Source: Burkholderia savannae
GTDB lineage: Bacteria; Pseudomonadota; Gammaproteobacteria; Burkholderiales; Burkholderiaceae
Reading direction: 5' to 3'
DNA length: 64,000 nt
Assembly (NCBI RefSeq): GCF_001524445.2
Contig: NZ_CP013417.1
Location: 1,860,001-1,924,000 of the forward strand
This document shows positions 11,412 through 54,165 of the stretch, piece after piece (position 1 is the stretch's first letter; every line of letters begins with the position of its first letter). A program made the position numbers and the translations under genes. Below the pieces are notes generated by a model that searched no databases, had not been told where the DNA came from, and saw only the letters and a list, made by a program, of their open reading frames with translations.

Positions 11412-11852
11412 ATGAAGCTCCGAACACTGTTGCTACTGGGAATGTCGTCCGCCATGCTCGCCGCGTGCGGCTGGTTCCATGCGGGCCCCGGCGAGCGCGA
11501 CATCGACGCGGCCGTGCGCCGCGCGCTCGACGCGGAGAATCGCGGGCCGCTCAACTCGATGCTCGGCCAGCCGCTGCCGGTGGCGGCCGACGTCGCGTCG
11601 GTGAAGCCCGTCGGCGATTGCACGAAGGTGGCCGAGCGCACGTATTCGTGCAACGTCGCGATCACCTGGCACGACGGGCGGCCGGACGAAGGCGACGCGT
11701 CGTTGCGCACGACGCTCACGTTCACCGAGGGCAGCGACGGCGCGTGGCAGACGTCGCACGTCGATGCGGCGCTCGCCGCCGGTGCGGCGAAGTCGCTGAT
11801 CGACCGCATCAGCGGTGCGATCGCGGCGAGCGGCGCGTCGCAGCCGCAGTGA
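11412..11852 (+). CDS. Hypothetical lipoprotein
   Basis: A 146-residue exported lipoprotein of unknown function. The signal peptide MKLRTLLLLGMSSAMLAAC ends in a lipobox (LAAC, Cys19). The mature part is small and mixed in character, with a CTK...TYSCNV cysteine pair that may form a disulfide and an Ala-rich C-terminal helix. Length and layout fit the many small Burkholderia lipoproteins with one compact domain. Transcribed alone. Confidence 0.7.
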   Translation: MKLRTLLLLGMSSAMLAACGWFHAGPGERDIDAAVRRALDAENRGPLNSMLGQPLPVAADVASVKPVGDCTKVAERTYSCNVAITWHDGRPDEGDASLRTTLTFTEGSDGAWQTSHVDAALAAGAAKSLIDRISGAIAASGASQPQ

Positions 11853-12240
11853 GCCGGCCGTTCGCGGCCGGTGGTCGGCGGGAGTGCTGCGTATTTCGGC
11901 GTGCGGCGGCGATCGGCTTCATGCAATTGAGCCGCCGCCGAAGCGGCGCGTGGCGTGTCGCTCATCGCTCGAAGCCGATGTGAGCGCACGGCGACCGGCT
12001 TCGGGCGGGGCCCCCGCGCGTTGCAACGACCGATCGCGGCGGTGGGCGCCGTGGTGCGCGCGGCATGTGCTCGGTCGCGCCGATTGGAGGCGGGCTGGGC
12101 GGTAAATGGTCGCCGCGACAGCGAACTCGCGCGCGAGCGCGACGCCCGATCGCATTCGGCGATCGGCCGCTGCACGGAAAGATTGTGGCGCGAGAAGGTT
12201 GGGAAAGGCGGGGAACCGGGCCGCGAAGAAGCGCTCGCGC
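11853..12240. other. Intergenic region without a supported gene
   Basis: About 390 bp of GC-rich DNA between the lipoprotein gene and the heptamer array. Open frames exist but show no domain, signal peptide or ribosome site. Confidence 0.45.
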
Positions 12241-12305
12241 AAGCCCTAAGCCCTAAGCCCTAAGCCCTAAGCCCTAAGCCCTAAGCCCTAAGCCCTAAGC
12301 CCTAA
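12241..12305. repeat. Telomere-like heptamer array (AAGCCCT / complement AGGGCTT, 9 copies)
   Basis: Nine perfect tandem copies of the 7-bp unit plus two further bases. The complementary strand reads TTAGGGC repeated, resembling a eukaryotic telomere unit with one extra base. In this context it is best read as a variable-number tandem repeat. Confidence 0.9.
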
Positions 12306-12511
12306 CAGAGGCCGTTGAAATTCTCTCCTGCAAGGTGTCGGAGAAAATCGTCGACCTCTCTGAATGCGCGACAAACCGCTTGTTCGGCTTCGGTATGGGG
12401 GAGGCTCCCCCAAAAACCTTGTGCGAGGAGCACCTCGCAAACCAGTTTTTCAATGGCCTGGTCAGCCCAACGCCGCGAGCCGTAACCTACCGCGCGCGGC
12501 CCCCGCGTCAC
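12302..12511 (-). other. Short open frame, possible transposase remnant
   Basis: A 69-codon frame starting MTRGPRAVGYGSRRWADQ and ending at the heptamer array. The segment RRWADQAIE is faintly like the start of a conserved block in IS5-group transposases, but the rest does not fit, and no terminal repeats were found. It may be a decayed insertion-sequence end abutting the array or simply non-coding. Confidence 0.25.
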
Positions 12512-12517
12512 GCGACG

Positions 12518-12748
12518 TCAGTGATGCGCGTACGTGCGCGGCGCGCGCACGGCACGCCGCACGTGGTGTCGGCGCTGCTTGTGATGATGCGTCGTTTTCA
12601 CGGCGTGCCGTGCCGGCGTGGCCTGCGCGCCGCCGGACATGCCCGTCTGACCTTCGCCGAAGTGATAGGTCTGCGCGTGGGCGACCGGCGCCAGCGCGGT
12701 CAGCGCGAATGCGGCGCAGGCGGCCGCGATGAGAATCGAAAGCTTCAA
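12518..12748 (-). CDS. Small exported His/Arg-rich protein
   Basis: A 76-residue protein of unknown function. The best start is TTG at 12746-12748: GGAG lies nine bases upstream and it directly begins a signal peptide (KLSILIAAACAAFALTALAPVAHA). The mature protein, about 50 residues, carries TYHFGEGQTGMSGG and a basic His/Arg-rich tail (KTTHHHKQRRHHVRRAVR). It could bind metal or nucleic acid, but nothing specific is visible. An ATG twelve codons upstream (12784) is the alternative start and has no ribosome site. Confidence 0.55.
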   Translation of the reverse strand: MKLSILIAAACAAFALTALAPVAHAQTYHFGEGQTGMSGGAQATPARHAVKTTHHHKQRRHHVRRAVRAPRTYAHH

Positions 12749-12920
12749 GAGAATGTGCTCCGGTCGGATAAGGCGAACGAGCATAGCGCGACTGCGGGCC
12801 GTGTGCCTTTCGTTTGCCTGCGCCGAATGATCTTTGACAATCGCGCGACGCGCTCGATGCCGGCGCGTCGCGCGGACGGCCGGCGCCGCGCATTGGCTTG
12901 TTACGCCGCCGTCGGTCGGC

Positions 12921-13211
12921 TCAGTACTGGCGATTGTCGTCGCCGCGTCGGTCGTCGCGCCCGCGGTCGCCGTCGCGATAGCCGCCGCGATCGTCACGCC
13001 GGTCGTCGCGCCGGTTGTCGTCACGGCGATAGTATTGCGGCGGATGCGAGCGTTCCCATTCAGCGCGTTCCCAGTAGCGCTGGCCGTCCCAATAACGGTC
13101 GCCGTGCCAGCCGATGCCGACGTTCACGCCGACGGCGGGTTCGGCCGGATACACAGCGCAGCCTGCGAGCATTGCGCTCGCGAGGAGCGGCAGAAGCATC
13201 AGTTTTTTCAT
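12921..13211 (-). CDS. Small lipoprotein with Arg/Asp-rich repeat tail
   Basis: A 96-residue lipoprotein. The signal peptide MKKLMLLPLLASAMLAGC ends in the lipobox LAGC (Cys18). A short Trp/Tyr-rich segment (GWHGDRYWDGQRYWERAEWE) follows, then a low-complexity tail of RRDD/DRRG units. Similar small lipoproteins with YXX-rich and DR-rich tails are common in Burkholderia; function unknown. An upstream start five codons earlier (MGLKV) is possible. Confidence 0.65.
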   Translation of the reverse strand: MKKLMLLPLLASAMLAGCAVYPAEPAVGVNVGIGWHGDRYWDGQRYWERAEWERSHPPQYYRRDDNRRDDRRDDRGGYRDGDRGRDDRRGDDNRQY

Positions 13212-13502
13212 GACTTTCAACCCCATGAAGTCGGTTCGTAACCCGAATCATAGAGAGTTGGCGGACCGCCGCGTGTAAAGGATTGCAACGGTATATGACG
13301 ATGACGGCCGCCGCGCCGCGCGATGCGGCGCCGCGTGTCGTCCCGGGCGGCGGACCGACGCTCGGGAAAGGCACGACGCTCGTGCAGCCGCCGAAGGCCG
13401 TTCATTCGCGACCGGGGTGCGCATGCCGTGTGCCGCCGTGCGCCGCCGCGCGCCCATTCGCATCGGCTCGCGCCGCAAGTGAATCGACGCGGCGCGATCG
13501 CA

Positions 13503-18350: not shown

Positions 18351-18878
18351 TCAGTGCGCCTTGGCGACCATGAAGTCGACCGCGGCCTCGACCTCGTTGT
18401 CCTTCAGGCTCGGATTGCCGCCGCGCGGCGGCATCGTGCCCTTGCCGCCGGTGAAGCCTTCGAGCGCGTGCTTGTACAGCGTCGGCTTGCCTTGCGCGAT
18501 GCGCGGCGCCCAGTCGTCCTTGTTGCCGGCGATCGGCGCGCCGGCCGCACCCGTCTGGTGGCACATGAAGCACACGCTCTTGAACACTTTCTCGCCGGCG
18601 GGGTTCGGCGCGTCCGCGGCGGTGGTCGGGGCCGCCGCGGCTGCATTGGCCGCGGGCGCCGGGTCGCTCGAAGGCGCGGGCGCGGCCGGCGCGGCGGACG
18701 GCGCGGAAGCGGCCCCGGCGCTCGCGCCGGCAGACGCGTCGACCGTGACCGAAGCGGCGGGCGCGATCGATGCCGACGACGCGGCGGGCGGCGCGCCGCC
18801 GTCGCGCTTGCCGCAGCCCGACAGGCCGAGCGCAAGCGCGAATCCGACGGCGGCGATCGACAGGTTTCGAATCTTCAT
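18351..18878 (-). CDS. Lipoprotein c-type cytochrome of the nos operon
   Basis: A 175-residue monoheme cytochrome c. Signal peptide with lipobox LSGC (Cys22), a long Ala/Pro/Ser linker (~30-92), then a compact cytochrome c5-like domain with CFMCH at 103-107 and a likely axial Met at 149 (GTMPPRGG). It would be tethered to the periplasmic face of the inner membrane and could donate electrons to NosZ. The position between two small nos-operon genes and nosR (72 bp upstream of nosR) supports this. Similar cytochromes are sometimes called nosC. Confidence 0.82.
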   Translation of the reverse strand: MKIRNLSIAAVGFALALGLSGCGKRDGGAPPAASSASIAPAASVTVDASAGASAGAASAPSAAPAAPAPSSDPAPAANAAAAAPTTAADAPNPAGEKVFKSVCFMCHQTGAAGAPIAGNKDDWAPRIAQGKPTLYKHALEGFTGGKGTMPPRGGNPSLKDNEVEAAVDFMVAKAH

Positions 18879-18901
18879 GGTTTTTCCTCGTATCAGGGGA
18901 G

Positions 18902-19327
18902 TCAGGATGTAACGGCCCGCGCATCGGACGAGCCGTGCGCGGACGGGGGTTCGTGGCCGAGCAGCGGCGCGTCGGCAAGCCGTTCGATCAGCACGCGGAC
19001 GTTGCGCCACGGCTCGGCGCCGATCTTGGTGACGGGATCGGCGACGACGCGCCCGTCCGGCGTGTGCAGATGATTCGGGTGCGCGGCGTTCGACGGCGCG
19101 CGGGCGTCGACGCCCGCGGGGCGCGGCGCGGTGTCGATGCGCATCTCGGCGTCGCCCCAGCGCCAGGCGATCGCGTATTCGTGCGGGCCCGCGATGCGCA
19201 GCGTCAGCTCGACGCCGTTCGCGAGGCTCACGTCGAGCGCGTCGCGGCGCAGCGTGACGGACGCGACGCGCGTCGCGTCGAACGTGGTCTCGATGCGCTC
19301 CTTCAGTTCGATGTGCAGCATCGTCAT
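18902..19327 (-). CDS. Nos-operon protein of unknown function (141 aa)
   Basis: A soluble 141-residue protein with no signal peptide. It looks like a small beta-rich domain (VASVTLRRDALDVSLANGVELTLRIAG, then YAIAWRWGDAEMRID), followed by a His/Pro-containing stretch (NAAHPNHLHTPDGRVVADP). No family was recognised. It overlaps the upstream 89-residue gene by four bases (ATGA) and is followed after 23 bp by the cytochrome gene, so it is cotranscribed with nos genes and probably helps NosZ assembly or electron supply. The start is MTM or the internal MLH two codons later. Confidence 0.6.
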   Translation of the reverse strand: MTMLHIELKERIETTFDATRVASVTLRRDALDVSLANGVELTLRIAGPHEYAIAWRWGDAEMRIDTAPRPAGVDARAPSNAAHPNHLHTPDGRVVADPVTKIGAEPWRNVRVLIERLADAPLLGHEPPSAHGSSDARAVTS

Positions 19328-19593
19328 GCTCCTTGCGCGAGCAGCAGCGCGCGCAGTTGCTCGCGGATCGTCTCGCGCGTGTGGGTGAGCGTCTTCGCGG
19401 CGACGTAGTGCTCGTACGCCGGGTGTTCGTCGACTTCGCCCGCCGCGATCCGCGCGAGCAGCGCCGCTTCGTCGGCCGCGCCGAATTCGGCGAGGAGGCG
19501 CTTGCGATCCTCGCGCAGGTCGTAGAGCAGGCGGCTCAGCGCGTCGATCTGCTGCGCCGCCTCGTTGGGCAGGTTGCGGAAGAAATGCGTCAT
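19324..19593 (-). CDS. Small helical nos-operon protein (89 aa)
   Basis: An 89-residue cytosolic protein, almost entirely helical by composition (AAQQIDALSRLLYDLREDRKRLL and the Ala/Leu/Arg-rich remainder). It has no cysteines and no recognised family. It starts ten bases after the nosL stop and overlaps the next gene by four bases, so it belongs to the nos operon. A role as a small adaptor is possible but unproven. Confidence 0.6.
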   Translation of the reverse strand: MTHFFRNLPNEAAQQIDALSRLLYDLREDRKRLLAEFGAADEAALLARIAAGEVDEHPAYEHYVAAKTLTHTRETIREQLRALLLAQGA

Positions 19594-19603
19594 CTCGTCG
19601 TCC

Positions 19604-20134
19604 TCACATCGTCTGGTCCTTGACGACGCCGCCATCCGTCGTCGCCATCTCGGGGGTGATCTCGTCGAAGCGGTAGAGCTTGCCGCCCTCGGTTTGCGCG
19701 AAGCGCGCGGCGTCGGCTTCGGAGGCGAACGACGCGAATGTCTGGCCCATCGCGCCGAGCTTCTTCGAGCCGATCACGTAGATCGCGCGCTTGGCGTCGA
19801 TCCAGTGGCCGACCGGGTGCCGCCAGTCGGCCGCGGCCATGTCCTGCACGTAGAGCGCGCGGACCTTGCGGTCGTGCTCGGGGCGCAGATAGACGGAGAA
19901 GAGGCCGAGCGTGTCGCAGAAGAAGTCCGGCTGGCCGTCCGCGTAGACGATCTGCGCCTTCGGGCCCGGGTAATCCTTCAGGCTCATGCCGTCGAGCACG
20001 CTGACGGTCGCGTCGGTGATTTCGCGCGGCGCGGGCGGCGTTTGCGCATCGTGGCCGCAGGCGGCGACGAGGACAGCGGCGGCGAGCGCGGCGACGGCCG
20101 TCCTCACGGCGGCGGGGATGCGGCGGTGTTTCAT
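19604..20134 (-). CDS. nosL: NosL copper-binding lipoprotein
   Basis: A 176-residue lipoprotein that delivers copper for the CuZ centre of NosZ. Signal peptide with lipobox VAAC (Cys26); the NosL core follows (SVLDGMSLKDYPGPKAQI, then DFFCDTLGLFSVYL and VQDMAAADWRHPVGHWIDA), with the Met and Cys residues expected to bind Cu(I). The ATG overlaps the nosY stop (ATGA at 20131-20134), so its translation would normally be coupled to nosY; the nosY frameshift should weaken that coupling. Confidence 0.88.
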   Translation of the reverse strand: MKHRRIPAAVRTAVAALAAAVLVAACGHDAQTPPAPREITDATVSVLDGMSLKDYPGPKAQIVYADGQPDFFCDTLGLFSVYLRPEHDRKVRALYVQDMAAADWRHPVGHWIDAKRAIYVIGSKKLGAMGQTFASFASEADAARFAQTEGGKLYRFDEITPEMATTDGGVVKDQTM

Positions 20135-20963
20135 CGATTGAATCTCCAGGCGGCGAGGCCGAGCGGCGCCACGATCCACGCGAGCATGACCGGGCCGAGA
20201 AAGAGCGGCGACGCGAGCGCGGCGGGAAACGCGCTGACGGCGCCGAACATCGTATGCAGATCGCCCGGCCGAAGATGTTCAGGATGCGGAACACGTCGGC
20301 GGGATTGAGCAGCAGCAGCGGCGGCAGCAGCGGGCCGATCCCCGCGCCGCCCGTGAGCACGAGCGCGCCGAGCAGCAGCAGGTCGTAGACGAGCACGAAG
20401 AAGAACCACAGCGCGATCGCGACGCCGCTCGCCGACGTGCGGCTCGCGCAGAACGCCGACGCGCACACGGCGATGCTCAGGAACACCCAGCCGAGCAGCA
20501 CCGCGCTCACGACGAAGCCCGCGTACTGATACCAGTCGGCGACGGGCACGCGCGCGGCGATCACCGCGCCCGCCGCGCCGAAGCCCGCGAGCGTCGCGCA
20601 GGTGAGGGCGGCCGCGAGGCCGGCGTACTTGCCGACGAGCAGCTCGGTGCGGGTGAGCGGATACGACAGGAGCAGGTTCAGCGTGCCGCGCTCGCGCTCG
20701 CCGACCAGCGCGTCGAAGCCGAGGATGAGCGCGATGAGCGGCAGCAGGTAGATCGTGAGGCTCACGAGGCTCGCGATCAGCGGCTCGATGCCGTGAAAAC
20801 CGACGGCGCCTTGCGCGGCCGCGCCGAAATACGAGATCGCGAGCGTGAATGCGGCGAACACGAGCGAGACCGCGAGCACCCAGCGGTTGCGGATGCGGTC
20901 GTGGAACTCCTTGCCCGCGATCACGCGGATTTGCGCCCACGGCGGGCGAGCGGGCGTGCTCAT
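20131..20963 (-). pseudogene. nosY: nosY permease gene interrupted by a one-base frameshift
   Basis: Encodes the membrane partner of NosF in the NosDFY complex that helps mature NosZ. From the ATG at 20963 the frame gives a normal ABC-2-type permease with six helices up to DVFRILNIFG (codon ~230), then shifts. The missing C-terminus (HTMFGAVSAFPAALASPL to LGLAAWRFNR) continues in another frame to the expected stop at 20131. The total length is 833 bp, one base short of 278 codons; the missing base lies near 20264-20270 in a GGCCGGGC run. As written, translation would read on in the wrong frame to about 19590. It overlaps nosF by four bases at the start. A sequencing error is the main alternative to a true lesion. 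Confidence 0.85.
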
Positions 20964-21874
20964 GCGTTCACCTCGTATCCGGCGTAGCCGAGGAACACGT
21001 CTTCGAGCGACGGTTCGTGAATGTGCAGGTCGACGATGCGCGCGGCGAGCGGCGACAGCGCGGCGATCGCCGCCATCTTTGCGTGTTGCGGGCAGGCGAA
21101 CGCGATCCGGCGGCCGCGGATCGTCGGTTCGCCGAACGGCGCGCGGCGCAGCGCGGCCTCGACGGCGCGCGTGTCGTCGTCGCGCAGCACGAGCTCGATC
21201 GTGAGCGGCAGGTTGGTCTCGCCGCGCAGCGCGTCGACGCTGCCCACCGCCTGCAGCCGGCCCGCGCGCACGATCGCGAGGCGATCGACGCGCTGCTGGA
21301 TCTCGGCGAGGATGTGCGACGTGATGACGATCGTCGCTCCCGCGCGCTGCCGCTCGCGAAGAATCCGGTAGAACGCGCGGATGCCTTCCGGATCGAGGCC
21401 GTTTGTCGGCTCGTCGAGGAACAGCAGGCGCGGATCGCCGAGTAGCGCCTGCGCGAAGCCGAGCCGCTGCTTCATGCCTTTCGAGTATTCGCGAACCTTG
21501 CGCGCGGCCGCGCGGGCGAGCCCCACTTCTTCCAGGAGCGGCGCGCACGCGGCCGGCTCGACGCCTTTGCGCCGCGCGAAGAAGCGCAGCGTCTCGAGCC
21601 CCGTCAGGTTGTCGTAGAGCACGACGTTTTCCGGCAGATAGCCGAGCGTGCGCCGGATCGCGAGAAACCGCGCGTCGCGCGCGGACACGCCTTCGATCCG
21701 CACGTCGCCCGCGTCGGCGGCGACGAGGCCGAGCATCAGCTGGAACAGCGTGCTCTTGCCCGCGCCGTTGCGGCCGATGAGGCCGAACAGCTCGCCCGGC
21801 GCGATCGAGAGATCGACGCCGTCGATCGCGCGCACCGCGCCGAATGTCTTGACGACGCCTGTCAGCTCGATCAT
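20960..21874 (-). CDS. nosF: NosF, ABC ATPase for NosZ maturation
   Basis: A 304-residue cytosolic ATPase. Walker A GRNGAGKST at 34-42, Q-loop, signature YSKGMKQRLGFAQAL, Walker B LLFLDEPTNGLD and switch His in ITSHILAE are all present; the C-terminal ~80 residues form the extra domain usual in NosF. It works with NosY and the periplasmic NosD to supply sulfur or copper for the CuZ centre. The ATG overlaps the nosD stop by four bases and its own stop overlaps the nosY start, so nosDFY is tightly coupled. Confidence 0.92.
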   Translation of the reverse strand: MIELTGVVKTFGAVRAIDGVDLSIAPGELFGLIGRNGAGKSTLFQLMLGLVAADAGDVRIEGVSARDARFLAIRRTLGYLPENVVLYDNLTGLETLRFFARRKGVEPAACAPLLEEVGLARAAARKVREYSKGMKQRLGFAQALLGDPRLLFLDEPTNGLDPEGIRAFYRILRERQRAGATIVITSHILAEIQQRVDRLAIVRAGRLQAVGSVDALRGETNLPLTIELVLRDDDTRAVEAALRRAPFGEPTIRGRRIAFACPQHAKMAAIAALSPLAARIVDLHIHEPSLEDVFLGYAGYEVNA

Positions 21875-23121
21875 CGCTTGCCCGCCCATTGTTGCCAGCC
21901 GGCGTGCGCGGCGCGCATGCGCGGCGCGTCGTCGACGACGCTCGGCACCGCGAGCAGCGGAAATTGCCGCGCGACGACGCGCAGCGCCTGCACGGCCGGG
22001 CTGTTCATCAGCACCTTGACCGGCGGCACGCGCCAGGTCAGCCGGTCGACGAGATCGTTCGCCTTGTACGGCACGTCGCCGACGCCGCGGCCGCGTGGGT
22101 CCCAGCCGATGTAGTTGCTCCAGTAGTTGCCGGGCCACGCGACGTCGGCCGCGGCGACGTAGCGGATCTGCTCGCGGTTGCCGGCGAAATCGTTGCCCGT
22201 CACGTCGTTGTGGATCGAGCCGCCCCACAGATGCACGCCGACCTTGTTGTCGACGACGAGGTTGCCGCGGATCGTGTTGTACTCGGCGTCATAGACGAAA
22301 AAGCCGCGCTGGTTGCCGGCGACGACGTTGTTCTCGATCAGCGAATCCTGGATCGTGCGCAGCATGATGCCGTGATCGGTGTTGCCCCAGACTGTGTTGT
22401 TCCGCACGATCTGATTGCGCGCCTCCATGATCGCGAGGCCGCCTCGGTTGTGATACACGTCGTTGCCGTCCCAGACGTTGTAGTAGGAGTTCATGTAGTG
22501 CGTGCCGTAGCGCACGTCGTGGATCGTGTTGCGCTCGAAGCGCGCGTGATGCGACACGTCGACGTAGATGCCGTCGCGCGCGTAGCTGATCGTGTTGCCG
22601 ACGATGCGCGCGCCCGTCGTGTTGTAGAGCTGGATGCCGTTGCCGCGCTTCGGCGACAGGAAATCGCGCTTGCCGACGATCACGTTGTCGGTGACTTGCA
22701 CGTCGGCCGAGCGCTCGATCCACATGCCGAACAGGTTGTAGACGAGCTCGCAGTGCTCGATGCGCGCGCGGTCGGAGCCCGGTTGCACGTAGACGCCCGC
22801 GTTCTGCGCGGTCAGGTCGGCGCCGCTGTCGACGATCGACAGGCCGCTGATCGTCACGTCCGGCGCGGCCACGCGGATCACGTCGCCGGAAAGGCGCCCG
22901 TCGATCGTCGGGCGGCCGACGCCGCGCAGCGTGAGGCGCTTGTCGATCGTCAGGTTCTCCGCGTAGCGGCCGGGATGCACGAGCACCGTATCCCCCGGCC
23001 GCGCGGCGGCGAGCGCCGCGCCGATGCGCTCGCCGGGATGCACGGCGAGCGTCGCCGCGAACGCGGCGTGCATCAGCAGCGGCGCGGCGGCGAGCGTCAC
23101 GAGAACGTGGGGAGTGGGCAT
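21871..23121 (-). CDS. nosD: NosD, periplasmic beta-helix maturation factor
   Basis: A 416-residue periplasmic protein. Signal peptide ~1-23, then a right-handed parallel beta-helix of CASH/NosD repeats rich in N-x-I/V-x-x-N-x motifs (e.g. NTISYARDGIYV, NTVWGNTDHGIML, NNVVAGNQRGFFV). The C-terminal part has YWSNYIGWDPRG and a helical end. It is required with NosF and NosY for CuZ assembly in NosZ. The start at 23121 begins the signal peptide. 183 bp separate it from nosZ, containing the 9-bp tandem repeat. Confidence 0.92.
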   Translation of the reverse strand: MPTPHVLVTLAAAPLLMHAAFAATLAVHPGERIGAALAAARPGDTVLVHPGRYAENLTIDKRLTLRGVGRPTIDGRLSGDVIRVAAPDVTISGLSIVDSGADLTAQNAGVYVQPGSDRARIEHCELVYNLFGMWIERSADVQVTDNVIVGKRDFLSPKRGNGIQLYNTTGARIVGNTISYARDGIYVDVSHHARFERNTIHDVRYGTHYMNSYYNVWDGNDVYHNRGGLAIMEARNQIVRNNTVWGNTDHGIMLRTIQDSLIENNVVAGNQRGFFVYDAEYNTIRGNLVVDNKVGVHLWGGSIHNDVTGNDFAGNREQIRYVAAADVAWPGNYWSNYIGWDPRGRGVGDVPYKANDLVDRLTWRVPPVKVLMNSPAVQALRVVARQFPLLAVPSVVDDAPRMRAAHAGWQQWAGKR

Positions 23122-23304: not shown

Positions 23305-25272
23305 CTATGCTTCGACGAGCATTCGCGAGCGCATCTCGAGGTGCAGCGCGTGACAGAAGTTCGTGCAGAAGCACCAGAACACGCCGGGCTTGTCCGCGAC
23401 GAACGTCACCGACTGCGTCTGCTGCGGATGCACGACGAAGTTGATGTTGTAGAACGGGATCGCGAAGCCGTGCGTCAGGTCTTCGACCTTGTCGAGATTG
23501 GTCAGGATGATCGTGACCTCGTCGCCTTTCTTCACGGTCCATTCGCGCAGCCCGAAAGTCGGCGCCTGCGACGTCAGGTAGACGGTGACCTTCCTGCCGT
23601 GCCGCTCGACGCGGCTGTCCTTCGCGTTCTTCACCGCGCGCGGGAACTCGTCGAGGTTGTAGATCTGCCGCGTCTTGATGATGTCGCGGCGCACGACGAT
23701 CGAATCGTGCGGCTCGGGATACGTCGGATGATCGGCGACGAGCTGCATCTTCTCGCCGCTGATGTCGATCAGTTGCGCGCTGTCCGGATGCAGCGGGCCG
23801 ACGGGCAGGTAGCGGTCCTTCGAGAACTTGTTGTCCGAGATGAAGAATTTGCCGTCCGGCTCCTTCGTCTCGCCCATCGACGTGAAGCCGTGGCCGGGCT
23901 GGTAGTGGACGTCGATCCGGTCGACGACCACCTTCGCCGCCTTGTCGCCCTTGTACGCCTTGATCGCCTCGTCGAGACTCCACTTGACGATCTGGCTGTC
24001 GAGAAAGAGCGTCGTGTACGCGTAGCCCTTGCCGTCGAAGCCTGTGTGCAGCGGCCCGAGCCCGATCTCGGGCTCCGCGACGACCGCGTCGCGCGGCTCC
24101 TTCAGCTCGCCCGCGAACCACTTGAGCATCAGCTCGTGCGAGATCAGCGTCGCGGTCGGCGAGAGCTTGCCCGCGCACGCATAGTACTTGCCGTCGGGCG
24201 AGACGTTCACGCCGTGCGGGTTCTTCGGCACGGGCACGTAGCAGGTGAGGGCGGTTTTCGGATCGGCGTTCGCCGCATGCGTGCCGTCGACGACGGGTAC
24301 GGGCGAATTGCCGATGCGAAACGTCTTGCCGTTCTTCACCGCTTCCTCGATGCGCGCGACGTTGAAGAACACGCACGCGTCGCGTTCGGCCGCCATCATG
24401 TCCTCGTAATGGACGCCGTTCTCGGTGTTGTACTGGTTCGAGCACGCGAGCTTGCCGTCGTACGACGTCGCGACGAGATCCATGTTGCCGTCGATCTTCA
24501 CCTGCCAGCGCGGCTGCATCGTCTTCGCGTCGACGCACGTGAAGAGGCAGTAGTACTTCTTCGGATCGTTCAGGTCGCGGCCGTCGTTCGGATGCGGAAT
24601 GTGGAACTCGTTGCCGCAGAACACGCGCGTCGTGTAGTTGATCTTGTCGTCGAGCGGGTCGCGCTTGTCCGGGAAGATGCCGTGGAAGCCCTGCACGTTT
24701 GGCAACGGCGTGATCGCGTCGCATTCCATCGTGTCGAGGCGCACGCGCGCGATCCGCGCGTTGATCTTGTCGTTGACGAAGATGTACTTGCCGTCGTACG
24801 TGCCGTCCGCATACGACATGTGCACGTGGTGCGTGTCGCCCGTGAAGTAGTCGAGCTGGCCGTTGGCCTTCGTGCCGATGATCTTGCGCGATTCGTTCGT
24901 GATGCCCCAGCCGGACATGCAGTCGATGTTGTAGACGGGAATGCGCCGTATCTCGCGGCCGGACGGCAGGCCGTGCACGCGGATGTCGCCCGAGTGGCCG
25001 CCGCTCGAGAACACGTAGTACGTGTCGAGCTTGCCCGGATGCACTTCGTACTTGCCGAAGTCGATCGCGGCGGCGGGGCTCGCGCCGCTCGCCGCGCTCG
25101 CGCTCGTGCCGCCCGCGGCGGCGGGCGCGTCGCCGCCCTTGTTGCAGCCGGCGAGGCCGAGCGACAGGCTCGCGCCCGCGAGCCCGGCGACCGCCGACGA
25201 CGCGAGGAACTTGCGCCGCCGCGCGTCCTGCGGCGCCGCCGCGTCTTCAGTGTTTGCCTTGGTATTAGCCAT
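23305..25272 (-). CDS. nosZ: NosZ nitrous-oxide reductase (clade I)
   Basis: A 655-residue copper enzyme that reduces N2O to N2 in the periplasm. A Tat signal (RRRKFLASSAV at ~18-28) marks clade I. Unusually the signal ends in a lipobox, LAGC with Cys43. The seven-bladed propeller carries the CuZ histidines (blocks GHSGDIRVHG, HHVHMSYADG, EFHIPHP, NPHGVNVSPDG, GLGPLHTGF). The C-terminal cupredoxin domain holds the CuA site: Cys636, Cys640, His644 and Met647 in CTNFCHALHLEM, with Asn where the Pseudomonas enzyme has Trp between the cysteines. Start ATG at 25272 has GTGAGAA upstream; a GTG one codon earlier is possible. First gene of the operon, preceded by FNR-type boxes. Confidence 0.95.
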   Translation of the reverse strand: MANTKANTEDAAAPQDARRRKFLASSAVAGLAGASLSLGLAGCNKGGDAPAAAGGTSASAASGASPAAAIDFGKYEVHPGKLDTYYVFSSGGHSGDIRVHGLPSGREIRRIPVYNIDCMSGWGITNESRKIIGTKANGQLDYFTGDTHHVHMSYADGTYDGKYIFVNDKINARIARVRLDTMECDAITPLPNVQGFHGIFPDKRDPLDDKINYTTRVFCGNEFHIPHPNDGRDLNDPKKYYCLFTCVDAKTMQPRWQVKIDGNMDLVATSYDGKLACSNQYNTENGVHYEDMMAAERDACVFFNVARIEEAVKNGKTFRIGNSPVPVVDGTHAANADPKTALTCYVPVPKNPHGVNVSPDGKYYACAGKLSPTATLISHELMLKWFAGELKEPRDAVVAEPEIGLGPLHTGFDGKGYAYTTLFLDSQIVKWSLDEAIKAYKGDKAAKVVVDRIDVHYQPGHGFTSMGETKEPDGKFFISDNKFSKDRYLPVGPLHPDSAQLIDISGEKMQLVADHPTYPEPHDSIVVRRDIIKTRQIYNLDEFPRAVKNAKDSRVERHGRKVTVYLTSQAPTFGLREWTVKKGDEVTIILTNLDKVEDLTHGFAIPFYNINFVVHPQQTQSVTFVADKPGVFWCFCTNFCHALHLEMRSRMLVEA

Positions 25273-25526
25273 CACATTCTCACTTATCGTTTCGATTCAG
25301 CGCCAAGCAACCGGTAGCTTTACTTCGATTTCAGAAATACGGGTTTCCTGGTGACTGGATATGCACCGCATTGCGGCAAAATGTCACTCAATAGCCTCAA
25401 TCTCCTTTCATCTCAAGGGCAAATGCAAATAAAACAAAAAGTAAGGATTATGAAATTTATTTATTCATCTTGATTTGAACGGAAAGATTTCCGTCGCTAG
25501 TGTCGTAGCTCGCCTATTCATGAGAA

Positions 25527-25894: not shown

Positions 25895-26953
25895 TTGTCT
25901 GCTTTTAGGAAAACCATTGGCCTGTCGCTGACGGCCATTATCGGTATCGCCTTTGCGCTCTGGCTGACGCTCAGAGCGCCGGAGGTTTATGTCCAGGGCA
26001 CTTATGTATTCGGCACGCGCGTGCAATTGGCGCTCTACGGCGTGCCGCTCGATCGCGCGCAGCAGGCGACGAACGCGGTGTTCGCGCATTTCCAGGCGAT
26101 GCATCGCGGGCTGCACGCGTGGCAGCCGTCGGACGTCACGCGGCTCAATCGAAGCCTCGCGGCGGGCGAGCCGTTTCACGCGCCCCCCCAGCTCGCCGCG
26201 ATCCTGCGCGCGGCGCGCCGTTTGTCGATCGACACACAGGGGCTTTTCGAGCCGGGCATCGGACGGCTGATCCGGCTCTGGGGCTTCCAGTCCGATCAGT
26301 TCGACGTGAAGCCGCCGTCGCGCGACGCGGTGCAACGCGAAACGGCGCGGCATGCGCGCATCGAGGATCTCGTCATTTCGCCGTCCGGCGTCGTTACGAG
26401 CGCGAACCGCGCGATCGCGATCGATCTCGGCGGCTACGCGAAAGGCTGGGCGCTCGACGACGCGGCCGCGATGCTCAAGGCGCAGGGCATCGACAACGCG
26501 CTGATCGACGTCGGCGGCAATCTGCTCGCGCTCGGCAGCAAGGGCGGCGAGGCGTGGCGCGTCGGCATTCAGGACCCGCGCAAGCCCGGCACGCTCGCGA
26601 CGCTCGAGCTGCGCGACGGCGAGGCGATCGGCACGAGCGGCGATTACGAGCGCTTCTTCCAGGCGAACGGCGTTCGCTATTGCCACATCATCGATCCGCG
26701 CAGCGGCTTTCCCGCGACGCAAAGCGAATCGGTGACCGTGCTCGTCGCGCCCGGCCCGCACGCCGGCGCGCTTTCCGACGGCGCGAGCAAGCCGCCCTTC
26801 ATCGCGGGACGAGCGGCGATGCCGCTCACGCGCGGGCTCGGCGTCGACGCCGTGCTGATCGTCGATGCGCAAGGGCGCGTGTGGGCGACGGACGCGATGG
26901 CCGCGCGCGTGCGCTTCGCCGATCCGGCGCTGCGCGCCGCTCGCCTCGATTGA
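25895..26953 (+). CDS. ApbE/NosX-type FAD:protein FMN transferase
   Basis: A 352-residue protein that covalently attaches FMN to a Thr/Ser of target flavoproteins. N-terminal membrane/signal segment (~7-27), then the ApbE domain with DLGGYAKGWALDDA, LIDVGGNLLALG, GTSGDYERFF and the metal-binding HIIDPRSGFPA block. In nos loci the homologue (NosX) flavinates NosR, which fits its position opposite nosZ and its FNR box. The start appears to be TTG at 25895; no strong ribosome site is visible and no in-frame ATG precedes the membrane segment. Followed after 20 bp by the ABC ATPase gene. Confidence 0.85.
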   Translation: MSAFRKTIGLSLTAIIGIAFALWLTLRAPEVYVQGTYVFGTRVQLALYGVPLDRAQQATNAVFAHFQAMHRGLHAWQPSDVTRLNRSLAAGEPFHAPPQLAAILRAARRLSIDTQGLFEPGIGRLIRLWGFQSDQFDVKPPSRDAVQRETARHARIEDLVISPSGVVTSANRAIAIDLGGYAKGWALDDAAAMLKAQGIDNALIDVGGNLLALGSKGGEAWRVGIQDPRKPGTLATLELRDGEAIGTSGDYERFFQANGVRYCHIIDPRSGFPATQSESVTVLVAPGPHAGALSDGASKPPFIAGRAAMPLTRGLGVDAVLIVDAQGRVWATDAMAARVRFADPALRAARLD

Positions 26954-44097: not shown

Positions 44098-46503
44098 TCA
44101 TTCGAATACGCTGACGTCGCAAAGCATGCGCCAATTGCGGCCAAGCGTGCGCACTTCCTGTCCCGATACGGTCAGCGTGCCGAACAGATGGATATCGCGG
44201 CTGGAACTGCCGATCATCAGATCGAACTCCCCGGGTTCCACGACGCGCTCGCCACGCTCGTCGGTAAAGTTGAGCATGTCGACCGGCAATCGGACCCGTA
44301 CGATTCTGCGCCCGCCCGCCGGCACGAAAACGCGCTGGAATCCCTTGAGTTCGCGCACCGGGCGCACGACCGATGCAATACGGTCACGGACGTAAATCTG
44401 AGCGACGTCTGTTCCATCCCGCTGGCCGACGTTTTCTATCTCGAAGACAAACTCGAATACCCCGCTGGCCACATCGGCGTGGCTGTCGATCAAATCAAGC
44501 GCCCCGTAGCGAAACCGCGTATACCCCAAACCGAATCCAAACGGATAGCGCGAGCCGAAATGGTAGGCGACAGGCGTGCCTGCGCTCTTCAGTTTGTGGT
44601 TGTACACGTAGGGCACCGCGCCCGCGCTTTTGGGAATCGACAACGGCAGGCGGCCGCTAAAGTCGGCCGCGCCGGAAACCAGCTCGGCGATCGCATCCGC
44701 TCCGCCCTCACCCGGCGCAAAGGCGACGATATGTGCGGCCACCACCTCCTCCAGCCCTCCAAGGTTGTAGGGGCGTCCCCCCGTCTGCACGACGACCGTC
44801 GGCGTGCCGCTCGCGACGACGGCCTCGAGCAGCGTCTGCTGCACGCCCGGCAGTTCGAGGCTATCGGTATCCGAGCCCTCCCCAACGGTGCCGGACTGGA
44901 ACAACCCTGCGAGGTCGCCGACAAACACGAACGCGACCGCCGCCGATCGTGCCGCGGCGACAGCGGAATCGATCTGTCGGAGGTCGCGGCTGATTGGAGC
45001 CTGCCGATTCTCATCGAGCGCGCGCGCCATATCCACGTCGCCTGGAAACACCGGCGTGCCCGCGCGCCGCTCCTGAATAATCTCGCACCCCTTCGCGTAG
45101 ACGACGCGATCGGCGGCGAATCGTTCCCTGAAAGCCTGCAGCGGGGTTTTCACGGGCGATCGCGCATCCTTGCCGGTCGTGATCAGATGGACCGGGAAGC
45201 TATAGCCGGCGAGCAGCGCGAGAGGATCGTCGGCAGTCGGCCCAATGACCGCCACACGATGCTCCTGCGCTGCACGAACCGGCAAAGTGCCGTCGTTCTT
45301 CAGCAGGACGATGGATTCGAGCGCGGCTTGCCGCGCGAGCGCCGTGGCGTCGCCGCCGCTCACGTTCACGCCGTCGGGGTCCGCATAAGGGCGCTCAAAA
45401 AGCCCCAGCCGGAATTTTTCGGTCAACACTCGCGACACCGCGGCATCGATCGCCTCCAACTCGATATCGCCGCGTTCGATCGCGGTTTTCAAGTGCAACG
45501 CGCACTCGTGGCCGGGAAGTTCGACATCGAGCCCGGCATTGAACGCCAATGCCGCGGCTTTCGCCTCGTCTTGCGCGACGCCGTGATGGGTGAGGAGCAG
45601 ATTGACCCCGGCATAATCGGCAACAACCAGTCCGTCGAATCCCCATCGACGGCGCAGCGTGCCTTCGATCAATGCCTGATCCGCATGACAGGGAATGCCG
45701 TCGATATCGTGATAGGCGGGCATGACGGACCCCGCGTCGGCCAGCTTGACCGCCATCTCGAACGGAAGCATGAAGATATCGTTGAATTCCCTCGGTCCGA
45801 TGCGCACGGGGGCGTGATTGCGCCCGCCCTCGCTCGCCGAATGCCCGGCAAAGTGCTTGAGCGTGGCGAGCAGATCCCGTCGCTCGCCCTGCAGTCCCTT
45901 GACGTAATGACAAGCCAGCACGCCCACCAGATAGGGATCTTCGCCGAACGTCTCCTCCGTGCGTCCCCATCGCGGATCACGCGACACATCCAGCACCGGC
46001 GCGAGCCCCTGGTGGCAGCCGATCGAACGCGCTTGCAGGCCGATTTCTCTGCCGACCGCCTCGATCAGCCCCGGGTTCCAGGTGGCGGCGTAGTTCAGCG
46101 GCGAGGGAAACAAGGTGGCGCCGTCGATCGTGAGGCCGACCAGGCATTCCTCGTGAGACATTACCGGGATACCCAATCGGGTATCCTCGACCATCCGGCG
46201 TTGCAGTTCGTTGAGCGCCCGGACACCTTCGCGGGCGTCGACCGCATGGGTCCCGAGCGGCCGGGTGATCTGCCCGAGGCCGTGTGCGAGCAGCGTATCG
46301 ACCGTAATGCCGGTCTGGCGCTGAGCAAAATCCGCGATTCGCCAGGTATGCTTCCCGTCGGATGACAGTTCCAGCCAACCGGCATGCAACTGGGCAATCT
46401 TTTCGTCCAGATGCATTCTTGCAAGCAGGTCGGCGACGCGCTCCCGGATTGGCGCATTCGGATTGCGATAAAGGGCGGAGTCTGTTGCGTGATCGATCGA
46501 CAT
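44098..46503 (-). CDS. GH3 glycoside hydrolase (probable beta-xylosidase)
   Basis: An 801-residue enzyme without signal peptide. GH3 barrel with DVSRDPRWGRTEETFGEDPYLVG, KHFAGHSASEGGRNHAPV and nucleophile Asp296 (LVVADYAG), then the alpha/beta sandwich (FVFVGDLAGLFQSGTVGEGSD) and a C-terminal fibronectin-like domain. The DPRWGR/SEGGRN pattern is that of bacterial xylosidase/glucosidase GH3 enzymes, and its place as the last gene of the xylose-oxidation operon favours beta-xylosidase activity (inference). 88 bp separate it from the aldehyde dehydrogenase gene. Confidence 0.85.
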   Translation of the reverse strand: MSIDHATDSALYRNPNAPIRERVADLLARMHLDEKIAQLHAGWLELSSDGKHTWRIADFAQRQTGITVDTLLAHGLGQITRPLGTHAVDAREGVRALNELQRRMVEDTRLGIPVMSHEECLVGLTIDGATLFPSPLNYAATWNPGLIEAVGREIGLQARSIGCHQGLAPVLDVSRDPRWGRTEETFGEDPYLVGVLACHYVKGLQGERRDLLATLKHFAGHSASEGGRNHAPVRIGPREFNDIFMLPFEMAVKLADAGSVMPAYHDIDGIPCHADQALIEGTLRRRWGFDGLVVADYAGVNLLLTHHGVAQDEAKAAALAFNAGLDVELPGHECALHLKTAIERGDIELEAIDAAVSRVLTEKFRLGLFERPYADPDGVNVSGGDATALARQAALESIVLLKNDGTLPVRAAQEHRVAVIGPTADDPLALLAGYSFPVHLITTGKDARSPVKTPLQAFRERFAADRVVYAKGCEIIQERRAGTPVFPGDVDMARALDENRQAPISRDLRQIDSAVAAARSAAVAFVFVGDLAGLFQSGTVGEGSDTDSLELPGVQQTLLEAVVASGTPTVVVQTGGRPYNLGGLEEVVAAHIVAFAPGEGGADAIAELVSGAADFSGRLPLSIPKSAGAVPYVYNHKLKSAGTPVAYHFGSRYPFGFGLGYTRFRYGALDLIDSHADVASGVFEFVFEIENVGQRDGTDVAQIYVRDRIASVVRPVRELKGFQRVFVPAGGRRIVRVRLPVDMLNFTDERGERVVEPGEFDLMIGSSSRDIHLFGTLTVSGQEVRTLGRNWRMLCDVSVFE

Positions 46504-46591
46504 AAGAACTTTCAGGAGAATATTCAGGATCTGACGTGACGCGTCGCCCGCGCTCGCTCCGATTCAATCGCAGCAAGCAAGGCGAACCGCA

Positions 46592-48034
46592 TTAAAGATC
46601 GCCAGGATTGATGTAGGCCGTTTTAATGGTGGTGTAGAACTCGCGCGCATAGGCGCCCTGCTCGCGCGGACCGTAGCTCGAGCCCTTGCGGCCGCCGAAC
46701 GGCACGTGATAGTCGACTCCGGCGGTGGGCGTGTTGACCATCACCATCCCTGCCTGAGCGTGCCGCCGGAAGTGTGTCGAGTATGTCAGCGAGGTCGTGC
46801 AGATTCCCGCGGACAAACCGAATTCCGTATCGTTCGCGATCGCCAGGGCGTCTTGATAGTCGGCGGCCCTGATGATCGTCGCGACAGGGCCGAACACCTC
46901 TTCGCGATTGATCCGCATTGAATTGGTCGTGCCGGTGACGAGCGCGGGCGCCAGAAAATGCCCGTCCGTCAGGCAGGTCACGCGTTCTCCGCCGTGAATT
47001 TCCGCGCCCTCGCCGCGGGCGACATCGAGATACGCTTCGACCTGCCGTAGTTGAACGGCGTCCACGACCGGCCCGATCTGTGTGCCCGGCTGCCTCGCGT
47101 CCCCTACTTTCAACGCACGGACCCGTTCAGTCAGCCCTGCCACGAAGCGATCGTGAATGCCCGCGGTCACGATCAGGCGGCTCGATGCCGTGCAGCGCTG
47201 GCCGGCAGAAAAAAAAGCGCCGTTCAGGCTGGCCTCGATTGCGATATCGAGATCCGCATCGTCCAGAACGACCATGGGATTCTTTCCCCCCATCTCCAAC
47301 TGGATGCGTTTTCCCGAGTCGAAACACGTTCTTCCGATATCGCGGCCGGTGGCGACCGAACCTGTGAAACTCACTGCGGCCACCAGCGGCGACTTCACGA
47401 GCGCCGCACCGACCACCGAGCCGGGCCCCATGACCAGGTTGACGACGCCGGGCGGCGCGCCCGCTTTCTCGATCATCCCGATCAGTTCCCACGCACTCGC
47501 GGGCGCCTGCGCCGCCGGCTTGAGGACAACGCAATTTCCGTAGGCGAGCGCCGGCGCAATCTTCCAGGCGGGTATCGCAATCGGAAAATTCCATGGCGTA
47601 ATCAGGCCGATCACGCCCAGCGGCTCGCGCGTCACTTCAACCGTCAATCCGGCTCGAACGGAAGGCAAGACGTCGCCGTTGAGCCGGAGTGCCTCGCCCG
47701 CAAAGAACTTGAACACCTGAGCGGCGCGCGTCACTTCTCCGATCGCCTCGGCAAGCGTTTTCCCTTCTTCCCTGGCGAGCAGGTCGCCCAACTCGTCCTT
47801 GCGTTCGAGAATGGCGTTCCCTGTTCTATCCAGCACATCGAAGCGCTGCTGCGGCGTCGATACGCTCCAGCGATCGAACGCGCGACATGCGGCGTCGATC
47901 GCCCACTGCGTCTCTTCCTCGTCGGCCTGAGCCACGTGACCGACGACGTCCGCCGTGTCCGACGGATTGATGTTCGGCAAGAAGTGGCGGCCCGGAATCC
48001 ACTTGCCGTTGATGAAATGAGTGAACTGTCTCAT
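46592..48034 (-). CDS. 2-oxoglutarate semialdehyde dehydrogenase (XylA of Weimberg pathway)
   Basis: A 480-residue NAD(P)-dependent aldehyde dehydrogenase. Asn149 (TPWNFP), Glu247 (LEMGGKNP) and Cys281 (SAGQRCTASS) form the catalytic set. Its length, the neighbouring gene set and the order match the last Weimberg step, oxidation of 2-oxoglutarate semialdehyde to 2-oxoglutarate, as in Caulobacter xylA. The ATG at 48034 overlaps the stop of the xylX-type gene by four bases. An upstream extension of the frame has no similarity. Confidence 0.85.
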   Translation of the reverse strand: MRQFTHFINGKWIPGRHFLPNINPSDTADVVGHVAQADEEETQWAIDAACRAFDRWSVSTPQQRFDVLDRTGNAILERKDELGDLLAREEGKTLAEAIGEVTRAAQVFKFFAGEALRLNGDVLPSVRAGLTVEVTREPLGVIGLITPWNFPIAIPAWKIAPALAYGNCVVLKPAAQAPASAWELIGMIEKAGAPPGVVNLVMGPGSVVGAALVKSPLVAAVSFTGSVATGRDIGRTCFDSGKRIQLEMGGKNPMVVLDDADLDIAIEASLNGAFFSAGQRCTASSRLIVTAGIHDRFVAGLTERVRALKVGDARQPGTQIGPVVDAVQLRQVEAYLDVARGEGAEIHGGERVTCLTDGHFLAPALVTGTTNSMRINREEVFGPVATIIRAADYQDALAIANDTEFGLSAGICTTSLTYSTHFRRHAQAGMVMVNTPTAGVDYHVPFGGRKGSSYGPREQGAYAREFYTTIKTAYINPGDL

Positions 48035-49251
48035 TGTTTCGTCCTCGAGGTTGCCGCGACAATCGGCTTCGGCGATTTGCTCGCCGCACCGACGTATCCT
48101 CTTCGCGCGAGATTGCCGTAGAGCGCGCGCACGCCGAACGTCCACGGCGAAATTTCGGTAGACAGCCGAACGGTATTGATCAGCGAGCCGATGGACGGCG
48201 TCGAAATCGTGACGACGTCGCCGGCGTGATGCGTAAACCCTTCGTCGCGAATATCGCGATCCTGGATCGGTGAGAACATCGTTCCCAGAAACAGCATGAA
48301 GCCGTCCGGATACTGATGATGGCGACCGTACGTTTGTGCGACGAGGTCCAGCGGATCGCGGCTGATCTCGCGCATGTGGCTCTTCCCTTCGAGGACGAAA
48401 CCGTCGTCGGCGCCCTCGATGCGAAGACAAACGCTTGCTGCTCTCACGCTGTCGAGCGTGAACTTCTCGTCGAACAGGCGCACGAACGGACCGATCGCAC
48501 ACGATCCGTTGTTGTCCTTCGCCTTGCCGAGCAGCAATGCGGATCGCCCCTCGATGTCGCGCAAATTGACGTCGTTCCCCAGCGTCGCGCCAACGGCCCT
48601 TCCCGCACTATTGACTGCAAGGACGATTTCCGGCTCAGGGTTGTTCCAGCTCGACATCGGATGAAGTCCGACATCGGCGCCAAACCCGACCGAAGCCATC
48701 GGCTGCGATTTTGTGAAGACCTCGGCGTCCGGGCCGATGCCGACCTCCATGTACTGAGACCACGCGCCGTTTTGCAGCAACGCCTCTTTCAGCTTCGCAG
48801 CCGCCTCGGACCCCGGCTTGATCTCCGACAGATCGGCCCCGATAAGCGTCGTGATCGCCCGTCGCATCTCATGAGAATTTTTTGCGTCTCCTCGCGCACT
48901 CTCTTCGATCACGCGCTCCAGCAGGCTAACCGCGAATGTCACGCCGCACGCTTTAATGGCTTGCACGTCGCACGGAGCCAGGAGCCTCGCCGGCGAAACC
49001 GCGCCCGGATCAAGAGCGTCCTTCAGAATGTCGTCGATCGAGCCCAGGAACTCGCCCTCGCCGTAACGGACGATCTCCAGAATATCGGGACGCTCGAAGA
49101 GATCCGACGTCGTAGGTCCGAACCGGGTGATATCGACAACACATCCGTCTCTGACCGTTACGACCGCCGGACCGTCAACGGGTGCGCTTCGCCACACGCG
49201 TCCGACGAGCAAGGCATCGCACAAATCGACCGGCAAATTTGTCTCGTTCAT
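48031..49251 (-). CDS. xylX: 2-keto-3-deoxy-pentonate dehydratase (XylX, FAH family)
   Basis: A 406-residue enzyme of the fumarylacetoacetate-hydrolase superfamily that dehydrates 2-keto-3-deoxy-D-xylonate (or L-arabinonate) to 2-oxoglutarate semialdehyde. Conserved blocks GVTFAVSLLERVIEE, WNNPEPEIVLAVNS, LGNDVNLRDIEGRSALLL and GTMFSPIQDRD closely follow those of Caulobacter XylX. The ATG at 49251 has GGTGAGA upstream; a GTG four codons earlier is possible. Overlaps the dehydrogenase gene and follows the porin gene after 134 bp. Confidence 0.87.
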   Translation of the reverse strand: MNETNLPVDLCDALLVGRVWRSAPVDGPAVVTVRDGCVVDITRFGPTTSDLFERPDILEIVRYGEGEFLGSIDDILKDALDPGAVSPARLLAPCDVQAIKACGVTFAVSLLERVIEESARGDAKNSHEMRRAITTLIGADLSEIKPGSEAAAKLKEALLQNGAWSQYMEVGIGPDAEVFTKSQPMASVGFGADVGLHPMSSWNNPEPEIVLAVNSAGRAVGATLGNDVNLRDIEGRSALLLGKAKDNNGSCAIGPFVRLFDEKFTLDSVRAASVCLRIEGADDGFVLEGKSHMREISRDPLDLVAQTYGRHHQYPDGFMLFLGTMFSPIQDRDIRDEGFTHHAGDVVTISTPSIGSLINTVRLSTEISPWTFGVRALYGNLARRGYVGAASKSPKPIVAATSRTKQ

Positions 49252-49384
49252 ATCTGATCTCACCGAACTCTCTCAAAAGTTCATCGTGCATTCGACGATG
49301 AAGCGCCCATCGCGTCGCACCAAAGCCGTTTCCGCACATCCGGAGGAACGACGTCCTACCGGCATCGCGCTCGCCAAACGATAT

Positions 49385-50461: not shown

Positions 50462-50733
50462 GCTCCAAACCCTCCATCTACCTTATTCGGGCCTTTTATG
50501 GATGCAACACCATTTGCCAGGCGCCCGATTCATTACGCAAACACATCATTTAGTTATACAAAATATATTGGCGTGATGCCTTCATGAAGTCGCACTTCCC
50601 GCTGCTCGGTTCTTCCGGGCAGGAATCGGACCGGTGACTTTGCTGGCTCAGCGGTTCCTGGCGCATCGCCCGATATGGCGATTAGGCGCCGCCGGCAAGA
50701 CAGCGGAGGAGTTCAGTCAACTCATGGCGATGT

Positions 50734-53401: not shown

Positions 53402-54165
53402 GCGCCGTACCAACCCGCATCCACGAAATATGCCCGCCCCGAGCAACGGGCGGAATCGCTGGAGGCGAGGAACAATGCCATGTTGGCCACGTGCTCCGGC
53501 TCTATCCGCAGCGGCAGACATTGCCCTTCGATGATCTTCGCTTCGCTTTCCGGAGATTGCCAGAGCTTCATCTGTCGAGGGGTACGCACCGCTCCCGGCA
53601 CAATGCAGTTGACCCGGATGCCATATGGTCCGAGATCGCGGGCAAGCCCGCGAGTCAGGCCTTCGATGCCGGCCTTGGCGGTCATGTAGATGGACAGGTC
53701 TTTCAACGCGAGATGCCACGAGATCGATCCGAGATTGACGATCGATCCGCCGCCGGCTTCACGCATGCCATTCGTCACGGCCTGCGAGCAAAAAAAATGA
53801 TGCTTGAGGTTGACGGCGAGCCGTTGGTCCCAGTCGCTGCTTGTAACGGATTCGACGGTGTTCCGATTATCGTTTGCCGCGTTATTGATCAACACGTCGA
53901 CGGGACCGGCGCCCGCTACGACCCGTTCGAACGCGCGCCCGATGGCGCCGACGTCCCGCAGATCGCACGAGACGAACGTCGGCGGGCATTCGGCCCGGCG
54001 GTGCGTAGCCTCGAGTGCGCTGGACTCCTCTTGTGCGATGTCCAGAAAGAACACTCGCGCGCGTTGCCTCACGAACGCCTCCACCATCGCGGCGCCGATG
54101 CCGCTTCCCCCTCCGGTGACGACGACGGCCTTCCCCGCAAGGCTGGGATAGATTGTGTGCGACAT
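53398..54165 (-). CDS. xylB: SDR aldose dehydrogenase (XylB-type)
   Basis: A 255-residue short-chain dehydrogenase. The TGGGSGIG cofactor motif is at 17-24, NNAA follows, and the catalytic Ser147/149-Tyr160-Lys164 set is present (NLGSISWHLALKDLSIYMTAK). Position at the head of the xylC-xylD-xylX-xylA run makes it the D-xylose (or L-arabinose) 1-dehydrogenase that starts the oxidative pathway. No strong ribosome site is seen; the ATG at 54165 gives the family length. 50 bp after the ABC ATPase gene. Confidence 0.84.
   Translation of the reverse strand: MSHTIYPSLAGKAVVVTGGGSGIGAAMVEAFVRQRARVFFLDIAQEESSALEATHRRAECPPTFVSCDLRDVGAIGRAFERVVAGAGPVDVLINNAANDNRNTVESVTSSDWDQRLAVNLKHHFFCSQAVTNGMREAGGGSIVNLGSISWHLALKDLSIYMTAKAGIEGLTRGLARDLGPYGIRVNCIVPGAVRTPRQMKLWQSPESEAKIIEGQCLPLRIEPEHVANMALFLASSDSARCSGRAYFVDAGWYGA

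What the first reader, a model, noticed from the sequence alone, without database searches (positions are those of the whole stretch)
20131..20963. nosY carries a one-base frameshift inside an otherwise complete nos operon
Two frames must be joined near 20264-20270 (a GGCCGGGC run) to rebuild NosY, and the total length is one base short of a multiple of three. All other nos genes are intact. Loss of NosY should block CuZ maturation and so N2O reduction, and would also uncouple translation of nosL, whose ATG overlaps the proper nosY stop. Either this strain is becoming a truncated (N2O-emitting) denitrifier, or the base was miscalled in a GC run.
Basis: partly seen in the sequence, partly recalled or inferred. 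Interest (0 to 1): 0.7.

Follow-up and report, generated by a model that had tools for sequence, protein, structure and literature searches.

The report
Frameshifted nosY in a nos operon
One gene of the machine that assembles the nitrous-oxide-consuming enzyme has a one-base reading-frame break in this genome; it is an ordinary, isolated lesion that would stop N2O removal if it is real and not a sequencing slip.

Summary
nosY (20131-20963, minus strand) is 833 bases: residues 1-232 lie in one frame, the last 45 in another. Two gene models trained on this genome put the switch at 20266-20268; none of 543 pieces of six intact neighbours shows such a shift. Relatives give no support for programmed frameshifting: 59 of 59 complete nosY genes, in 62 of 80 nos loci with a match, read through in one frame. 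An intact database protein from another, unnamed contig matches both pieces except at one residue. The break removes the last membrane helix and adds a 225-residue arginine-rich tail. Two narG, one nirK, a NorB and the other nos genes are open, so N2O is the predicted end product if the lesion is real. Open-frame breaks are few: 3 in 464 kb here, 4 in 800 kb of four relatives, but all 4 in one of them. This argues against a generally bad assembly but cannot exclude one miscalled base. Uncoupling of nosL is only partly supported: nosL keeps a ribosome-binding motif. Ordinary frameshift candidate.

The parts
20268..20963 (-). nosY, N-terminal piece (232 residues, five membrane helices by hydropathy)
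   Evidence: PF12679 E 1.6e-40 for its first 231 residues; 231 of 232 residues as in P0001
20264..20270 (-). frame break; models place it at 20266-20268, in a G/C stretch with no run longer than three
20131..20268 (-). nosY, C-terminal piece in the second frame (45 residues and stop, last membrane helix)
   Evidence: 45 of 45 residues as in P0001; 14 of 15 conserved columns kept; too short for a family hit of its own
19590..19592 (-). stop codon reached by the shifted frame; it overlaps the ATG (19593) of the next ORF as ATGA
19604..20134 (-). nosL, intact; ATGA overlap with the nosY stop, GGAG 9 bases before its ATG
   Evidence: PF05573 E 4.4e-48
20960..21874 (-). nosF (304 residues), ATGA overlap with nosY
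   Evidence: ABC_tran in the ORF 20960-22228; start; overlap
21871..23121 (-). nosD (416 residues), ATGA overlap with nosF
   Evidence: PF05048 E 2.7e-57
23305..25275 (-). nosZ (656 residues)
   Evidence: nos_propeller E 3.8e-37; matched over residues 1-656 at 87% by L039
16146..18287 (-). nosR-type gene (713 residues)
   Evidence: Fer4_5 and FMN_bind
18351..19010 (-). c-type cytochrome ORF
   Evidence: PF13442 E 3.2e-13
25895..26953 (+). apbE family, nosX-type
   Evidence: PF02424 E 1.7e-66; the name nosX is inference from position
20223..20229 (-). T TTC CCG heptamer in the shifted frame, 13 codons after the break; probably chance

Best explanation
nosY of this strain carries a genuine, recent one-base frameshift that is private to the strain or rare. 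Ribosomes make the first five membrane helices of NosY, then an arginine-rich tail in place of the sixth, and stop beyond nosL. The NosDFY transporter should not assemble, so NosZ would be made without a working CuZ centre and a denitrification pathway that is otherwise present would end at N2O. Shown here: the frame break, loss of a conserved C-terminus, open nar, nir, nor and other nos genes, and no second nosY. Inferred: that the base is really absent in the living strain, that the product is dead, and the N2O phenotype.
For: Frame break by two models. 119 of the 120 listed homologues keep the stretch after the break; 59 of 59 complete relatives are one-framed. Closest intact protein agrees with both pieces except residue 81. 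The as-is tail has 225 residues, 70 arginines and no membrane helix and no homologue. One nosY only; two narG, nirK, NorB. NosDFY is described as needed for the CuZ centre (passages of PMC7660919 and PMC7558416). In B. pseudomallei a nosZ deletion grew like wild type under hypoxia with nitrate (PMC8191878, section 12), so loss may be tolerated. Few frame breaks in the assembly.
Against: No read data. Apart from the break nosY is undamaged, which fits a miscall equally well. Three of the four comparison genomes gave no open-frame break in 600 kb, against 3 in 464 kb here, so an error rate somewhat above theirs is not excluded. A paper on two Bacillus genomes treated similar single lesions in nirK and qnorB as probable or possible sequencing errors because the strain was active (passages of PMC3475470).
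Confidence: 0.55

Rival explanations
1. Sequencing or assembly error: one base miscalled in a G/C stretch; the living strain has an intact nosY and reduces N2O normally.
For: Single lesion in an otherwise perfect gene; G/C-rich context; an intact copy exists on another very similar contig; precedent of suspected errors in denitrification genes (passages of PMC3475470).
Against: The longest run at the site is three bases. Open-frame breaks are few: 3 in 464 kb of this genome, 4 in 800 kb of four relatives. The genome is in three contigs with completeness 100.
Confidence: 0.4
2. Programmed or tolerated recoding: slippage, perhaps at T TTC CCG 13 codons after the break, restores the last 32 residues and leaves a working NosY with 13 changed residues.
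For: One X XXY YYZ heptamer lies in the shifted frame, in the direction that would return it to the NosY frame; residues 246-247 are the same in both frames.
Against: 0 of 62 loci with nosY show two frames. The heptamer is the codon pair of a conserved Phe-Pro and occurs in unbroken relatives too (at least 6 loci in the 12 commonest contexts shown). None of the 13 residues between matches NosY. No heptamer at the break itself.
Confidence: 0.03

Closest known systems
NosY, permease of the NosDFY transporter (solved chain 7o0y_D, one of 17 entries)
   Same: Residues 11-274 of the intact homologue P0001 align to the solved NosY (E 8.6e-55); the same gene order D-F-Y-L with NosF, NosD and NosL beside it.
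   Different: In the window the reading frame breaks after residue 232 and the last helix is lost.
Frameshift pseudogenes in denitrification genes, such as qnorB of Bacillus bataviensis (passages of PMC3475470)
   Same: A denitrification gene broken by frameshift in a sequenced genome, with mutation and sequencing error both open.
   Different: There two lesions in one of two qnorB copies; here one lesion in the only nosY.
Truncated denitrifiers that end at N2O
   Same: nar, nir and nor are present and N2O reduction is predicted to be absent.
   Different: Such strains usually lack nosZ (recalled). Here nosZ is intact and only an assembly gene is broken, so a nosZ survey would count the strain as an N2O consumer.

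Membership tests
NosY (ABC-2 permease of NosDFY) | ABC-2 permease fold family, in a nos cluster beside nosD, nosF and nosL | tested here: met
   PF12679 1.6e-40 for the N-terminal piece; neighbours by Pfam
NosY (ABC-2 permease of NosDFY) | Complete C-terminus with the last membrane helix in the same frame | tested here: not met
   Frame break at 20266-20268; last 45 residues in another frame
Frameshift pseudogene | Disrupted frame where orthologues are intact | tested here: met
   59 of 59 complete relatives one-framed; closest protein P0001 intact
Frameshift pseudogene | Lesion present in the organism, not only in the deposited sequence | not testable with these tools
   No reads held; background of open-frame breaks low but not decisive
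Programmed frameshift gene | Slippery site at the break and break conserved in relatives | tested here: not met
   No heptamer at the break, one 13 codons after it; 0 of 62 relatives two-framed
Denitrifier ending at N2O | Nitrate, nitrite and NO reductases present and open | tested here: met
   Two narG, nirK, NorB domain protein
Denitrifier ending at N2O | N2O is not reduced to N2 | not testable with these tools
   Needs a gas measurement; inferred from loss of NosY

The most novel reading that the evidence does not exclude
A natural nosZ-positive but NosY-deficient strain that makes N2O reductase without its active centre and so emits N2O, although gene surveys would score it as a complete denitrifier. 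In the boldest form (about 0.03 on its own) slippage on a heptamer 13 codons past the break leaves a trickle of working NosY.
Probability: 0.4. Interest if true: 0.35.

Novelty: new member of a known kind. Interest (0 to 1): 0.2.

Why it matters
If real, it is a clean example of N2O reduction lost through an assembly gene while nosZ stays intact, which surveys of nosZ alone would miss, and it would show that the last step of denitrification is dispensable for at least one strain of this group. If it is a base-call error, it is a reminder not to read physiology from one base.

Tried and rejected
Programmed or conserved frameshift: tested on the 62 of 80 nos loci that hold a nosY match, and rejected. 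Second nosY in the genome: not found. Same-genus genomes as comparison: only this genome of 65 has the nosZ propeller, so the nearest named relatives came from Paraburkholderia, Paludibacterium and Trinickia (110 of 116 stretches encode a relative, best 80 kept). DNA search of nosY in 61 genomes: 45 have a match, but apart from the window and G045 (same order, 70% over 296 bases) those I saw are short; the list was cut. Search with the shifted tail in the protein database: no hit; weak evidence, since gene callers may not report such a frame. Naming the species by a plasmid stretch and a C2 stretch gave mainly Burkholderia at about 80% identity, no species. Literature on a nosY frameshift: (36 papers, 20 listed, mostly on other subjects); the one denitrification paper in the list, PMC3475470, was searched for passages and shows frameshifts in other genes, not nosY. 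PMC7648151, on denitrification in B. thailandensis, is not held. The first frame-break detector (codon model) was insensitive (20 of 84 simulated losses) and flagged L126 twice next to a tandem repeat; the 4th-order model replaced it (51 of 105, and 50 of 71 at least 120 bases from gene-segment ends). In one search one of four own flags (L131) and four of eight flags in relatives (L156, L161, L168, L189) have a stop codon at the junction and look like ordinary gene ends; I dropped them to reach 3 and 4. Wrong frames or strands of mine gave empty family results for nosF and for nirK and norB; repeated rightly.

Full report
What is there. The window lies in a 7.43-Mb genome of three contigs (4,228,278, 2,824,254 and 375,023 bases). 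On the minus strand it holds nosZ, nosD, nosF, nosY and nosL, then two short ORFs without a family hit, a c-type cytochrome, a nosR-type gene and a mechanosensitive channel; an apbE family gene stands on the plus strand upstream. nosD/nosF, nosF/nosY and nosY/nosL each overlap as ATGA. nosY is 833 bases. From its ATG the frame is NosY for 232 residues and then runs on, out of frame, through nosL to a stop at 19590-19592, 457 residues in all. The last 45 residues of NosY lie in the frame that ends at 20131.

Is it more than chance? Two gene models were trained on this window and 20 further 20-kb stretches of the same genome, without homology (nosY's own bases were in the training set). Both switch frame inside nosY: at 20267 (codon model) and 20266-20268 (4th-order Markov model). 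Over 20134-20264 the second frame scores +7.0 and the first -37.5. In 543 pieces of equal length from six intact neighbours the true frame always wins, by at least 30.6.

Relatives. Of 80 nos loci from named genome contigs, 62 contain a nosY match. Of these 59 are complete and read through to query residue 274-303 in one frame, three are cut by the end of the locus, and none has a second-frame piece (L068 and L069 are two loci of one record). 47 of the 59 have ATGA at the nosY stop. Among the best 120 of 2681 protein homologues, 119 keep at least 35 of the 45 residues after the break. The closest, P0001, stands for five member sequences and comes from a 4,081,657-base contig, which is none of the three contigs of this genome. 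It agrees with the window's N-terminal piece at 231 of 232 residues and with the C-terminal piece at 45 of 45. At the one difference, residue 81, it is P0001 and not the window that departs from the consensus. Its source is not shown: the tool prints '-' there. So an intact copy exists in a very close relative, and the lesion is private to this strain or rare; how rare could not be counted, because near relatives are not held (1 of 65 genomes of the genus has the nosZ propeller, this one).

Real or miscalled? The Markov detector found 60 same-strand frame junctions in 464 kb of this genome. Four were flagged, three of them with the upstream frame open beyond the junction: nosY, L122:12860 and L125:13187. 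Four relatives (G006, G008, G017, G024; 200 kb each, 130 junctions) gave eight flags, four of them of the open kind, all in G006; the other three relatives had none in 600 kb. Seven further control loci (103 kb) had none of 35. Detection of simulated single-base losses was 51 of 105, and 50 of 71 away from segment ends. The assembly is thus not rich in frame breaks, which speaks against a generally poor sequence, but it is not cleaner than the best relatives, and no rate can decide a single base. The otherwise perfect state of nosY fits a fresh mutation and a miscall alike. I put 0.55 on a real lesion and 0.4 on an error.

Consequence. By hydropathy the last membrane helix of the intact protein lies at about 254-272, so the break removes it; a paper on Bacillus implies six helices as usual for NosY (passage of PMC3475470). 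In its place comes a tail of 225 residues with 70 arginines and no membrane helix. No homologue of the tail was found. NosDFY is described as essential for maturation of the CuZ centre (passages of PMC7660919 and PMC7558416); the mutant cited there is in nosD, so the step to nosY is inference from the complex. The genome has one nosY, two narG over the family cut-off, one nirK of 519 residues with a cytochrome c domain and one NorB-type NO reductase among six COX1-family matches, all open. The prediction is N2O as end product. In B. pseudomallei, whose nar, nir, nor and nos genes also lie on two chromosomes (passages of PMC5524735), a nosZ deletion grew like wild type under hypoxia with nitrate (PMC8191878, section 12), so loss of this step may be tolerated.

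nosL. Termination next to nosL at the ATGA is lost. But a GGAG stands 9 bases before the nosL ATG, and the shifted frame stays open across nosL, so neither loss of initiation nor Rho-dependent polarity need follow (inference). By coincidence the shifted frame ends in the ATGA at the start of the next ORF (19593).

Recoding. No X XXY YYZ heptamer lies at the break. One, T TTC CCG, lies 13 codons downstream in the shifted frame. It is the codon pair of a conserved Phe-Pro and is also seen in unbroken relatives (at least 6 loci among the 12 commonest contexts shown), so I read it as chance.

Species. Not established. The plasmid and C2 stretches match Burkholderia best, at about 80%, and the layout of the denitrification genes resembles that reported for B. 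pseudomallei, but no call names the organism. I therefore treated it as possible kin of a listed germ and mended nothing.

Verdict.

Noticed in passing
window 19590-19593: The shifted nosY frame ends in a TGA that overlaps the ATG of the next ORF (19324-19593) as ATGA.
   Followed up: partly
L122:12860 and L125:13187 (G000 contig 1): Two further open-frame breaks in this genome, found by the same detector.
   Followed up: partly
L126:8409-8640: A long 9-base tandem repeat, read as (ADI)n, (PTS)n or (MSA)n in different frames, at the start of an ORF.
   Followed up: no
window 44098-55382: A block of minus-strand sugar-catabolism genes (GH3, aldehyde dehydrogenase, FAA hydrolase, porin, IlvD/EDD, SMP30, SDR, MalK-like ABC) that the codon model follows only in fragments.
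   Followed up: partly
L139 (G000 contig 3, first 20 kb of 375 kb): The third contig resembles plasmids of Burkholderia cenocepacia and relatives at about 81% and has an IS66-type element at 11414-13496.
   Followed up: no
L068 and L069: The Dyella jiangningensis SBZ 3-12 record gives two nos loci with equal match values, at two places of one chromosome.
   Followed up: no
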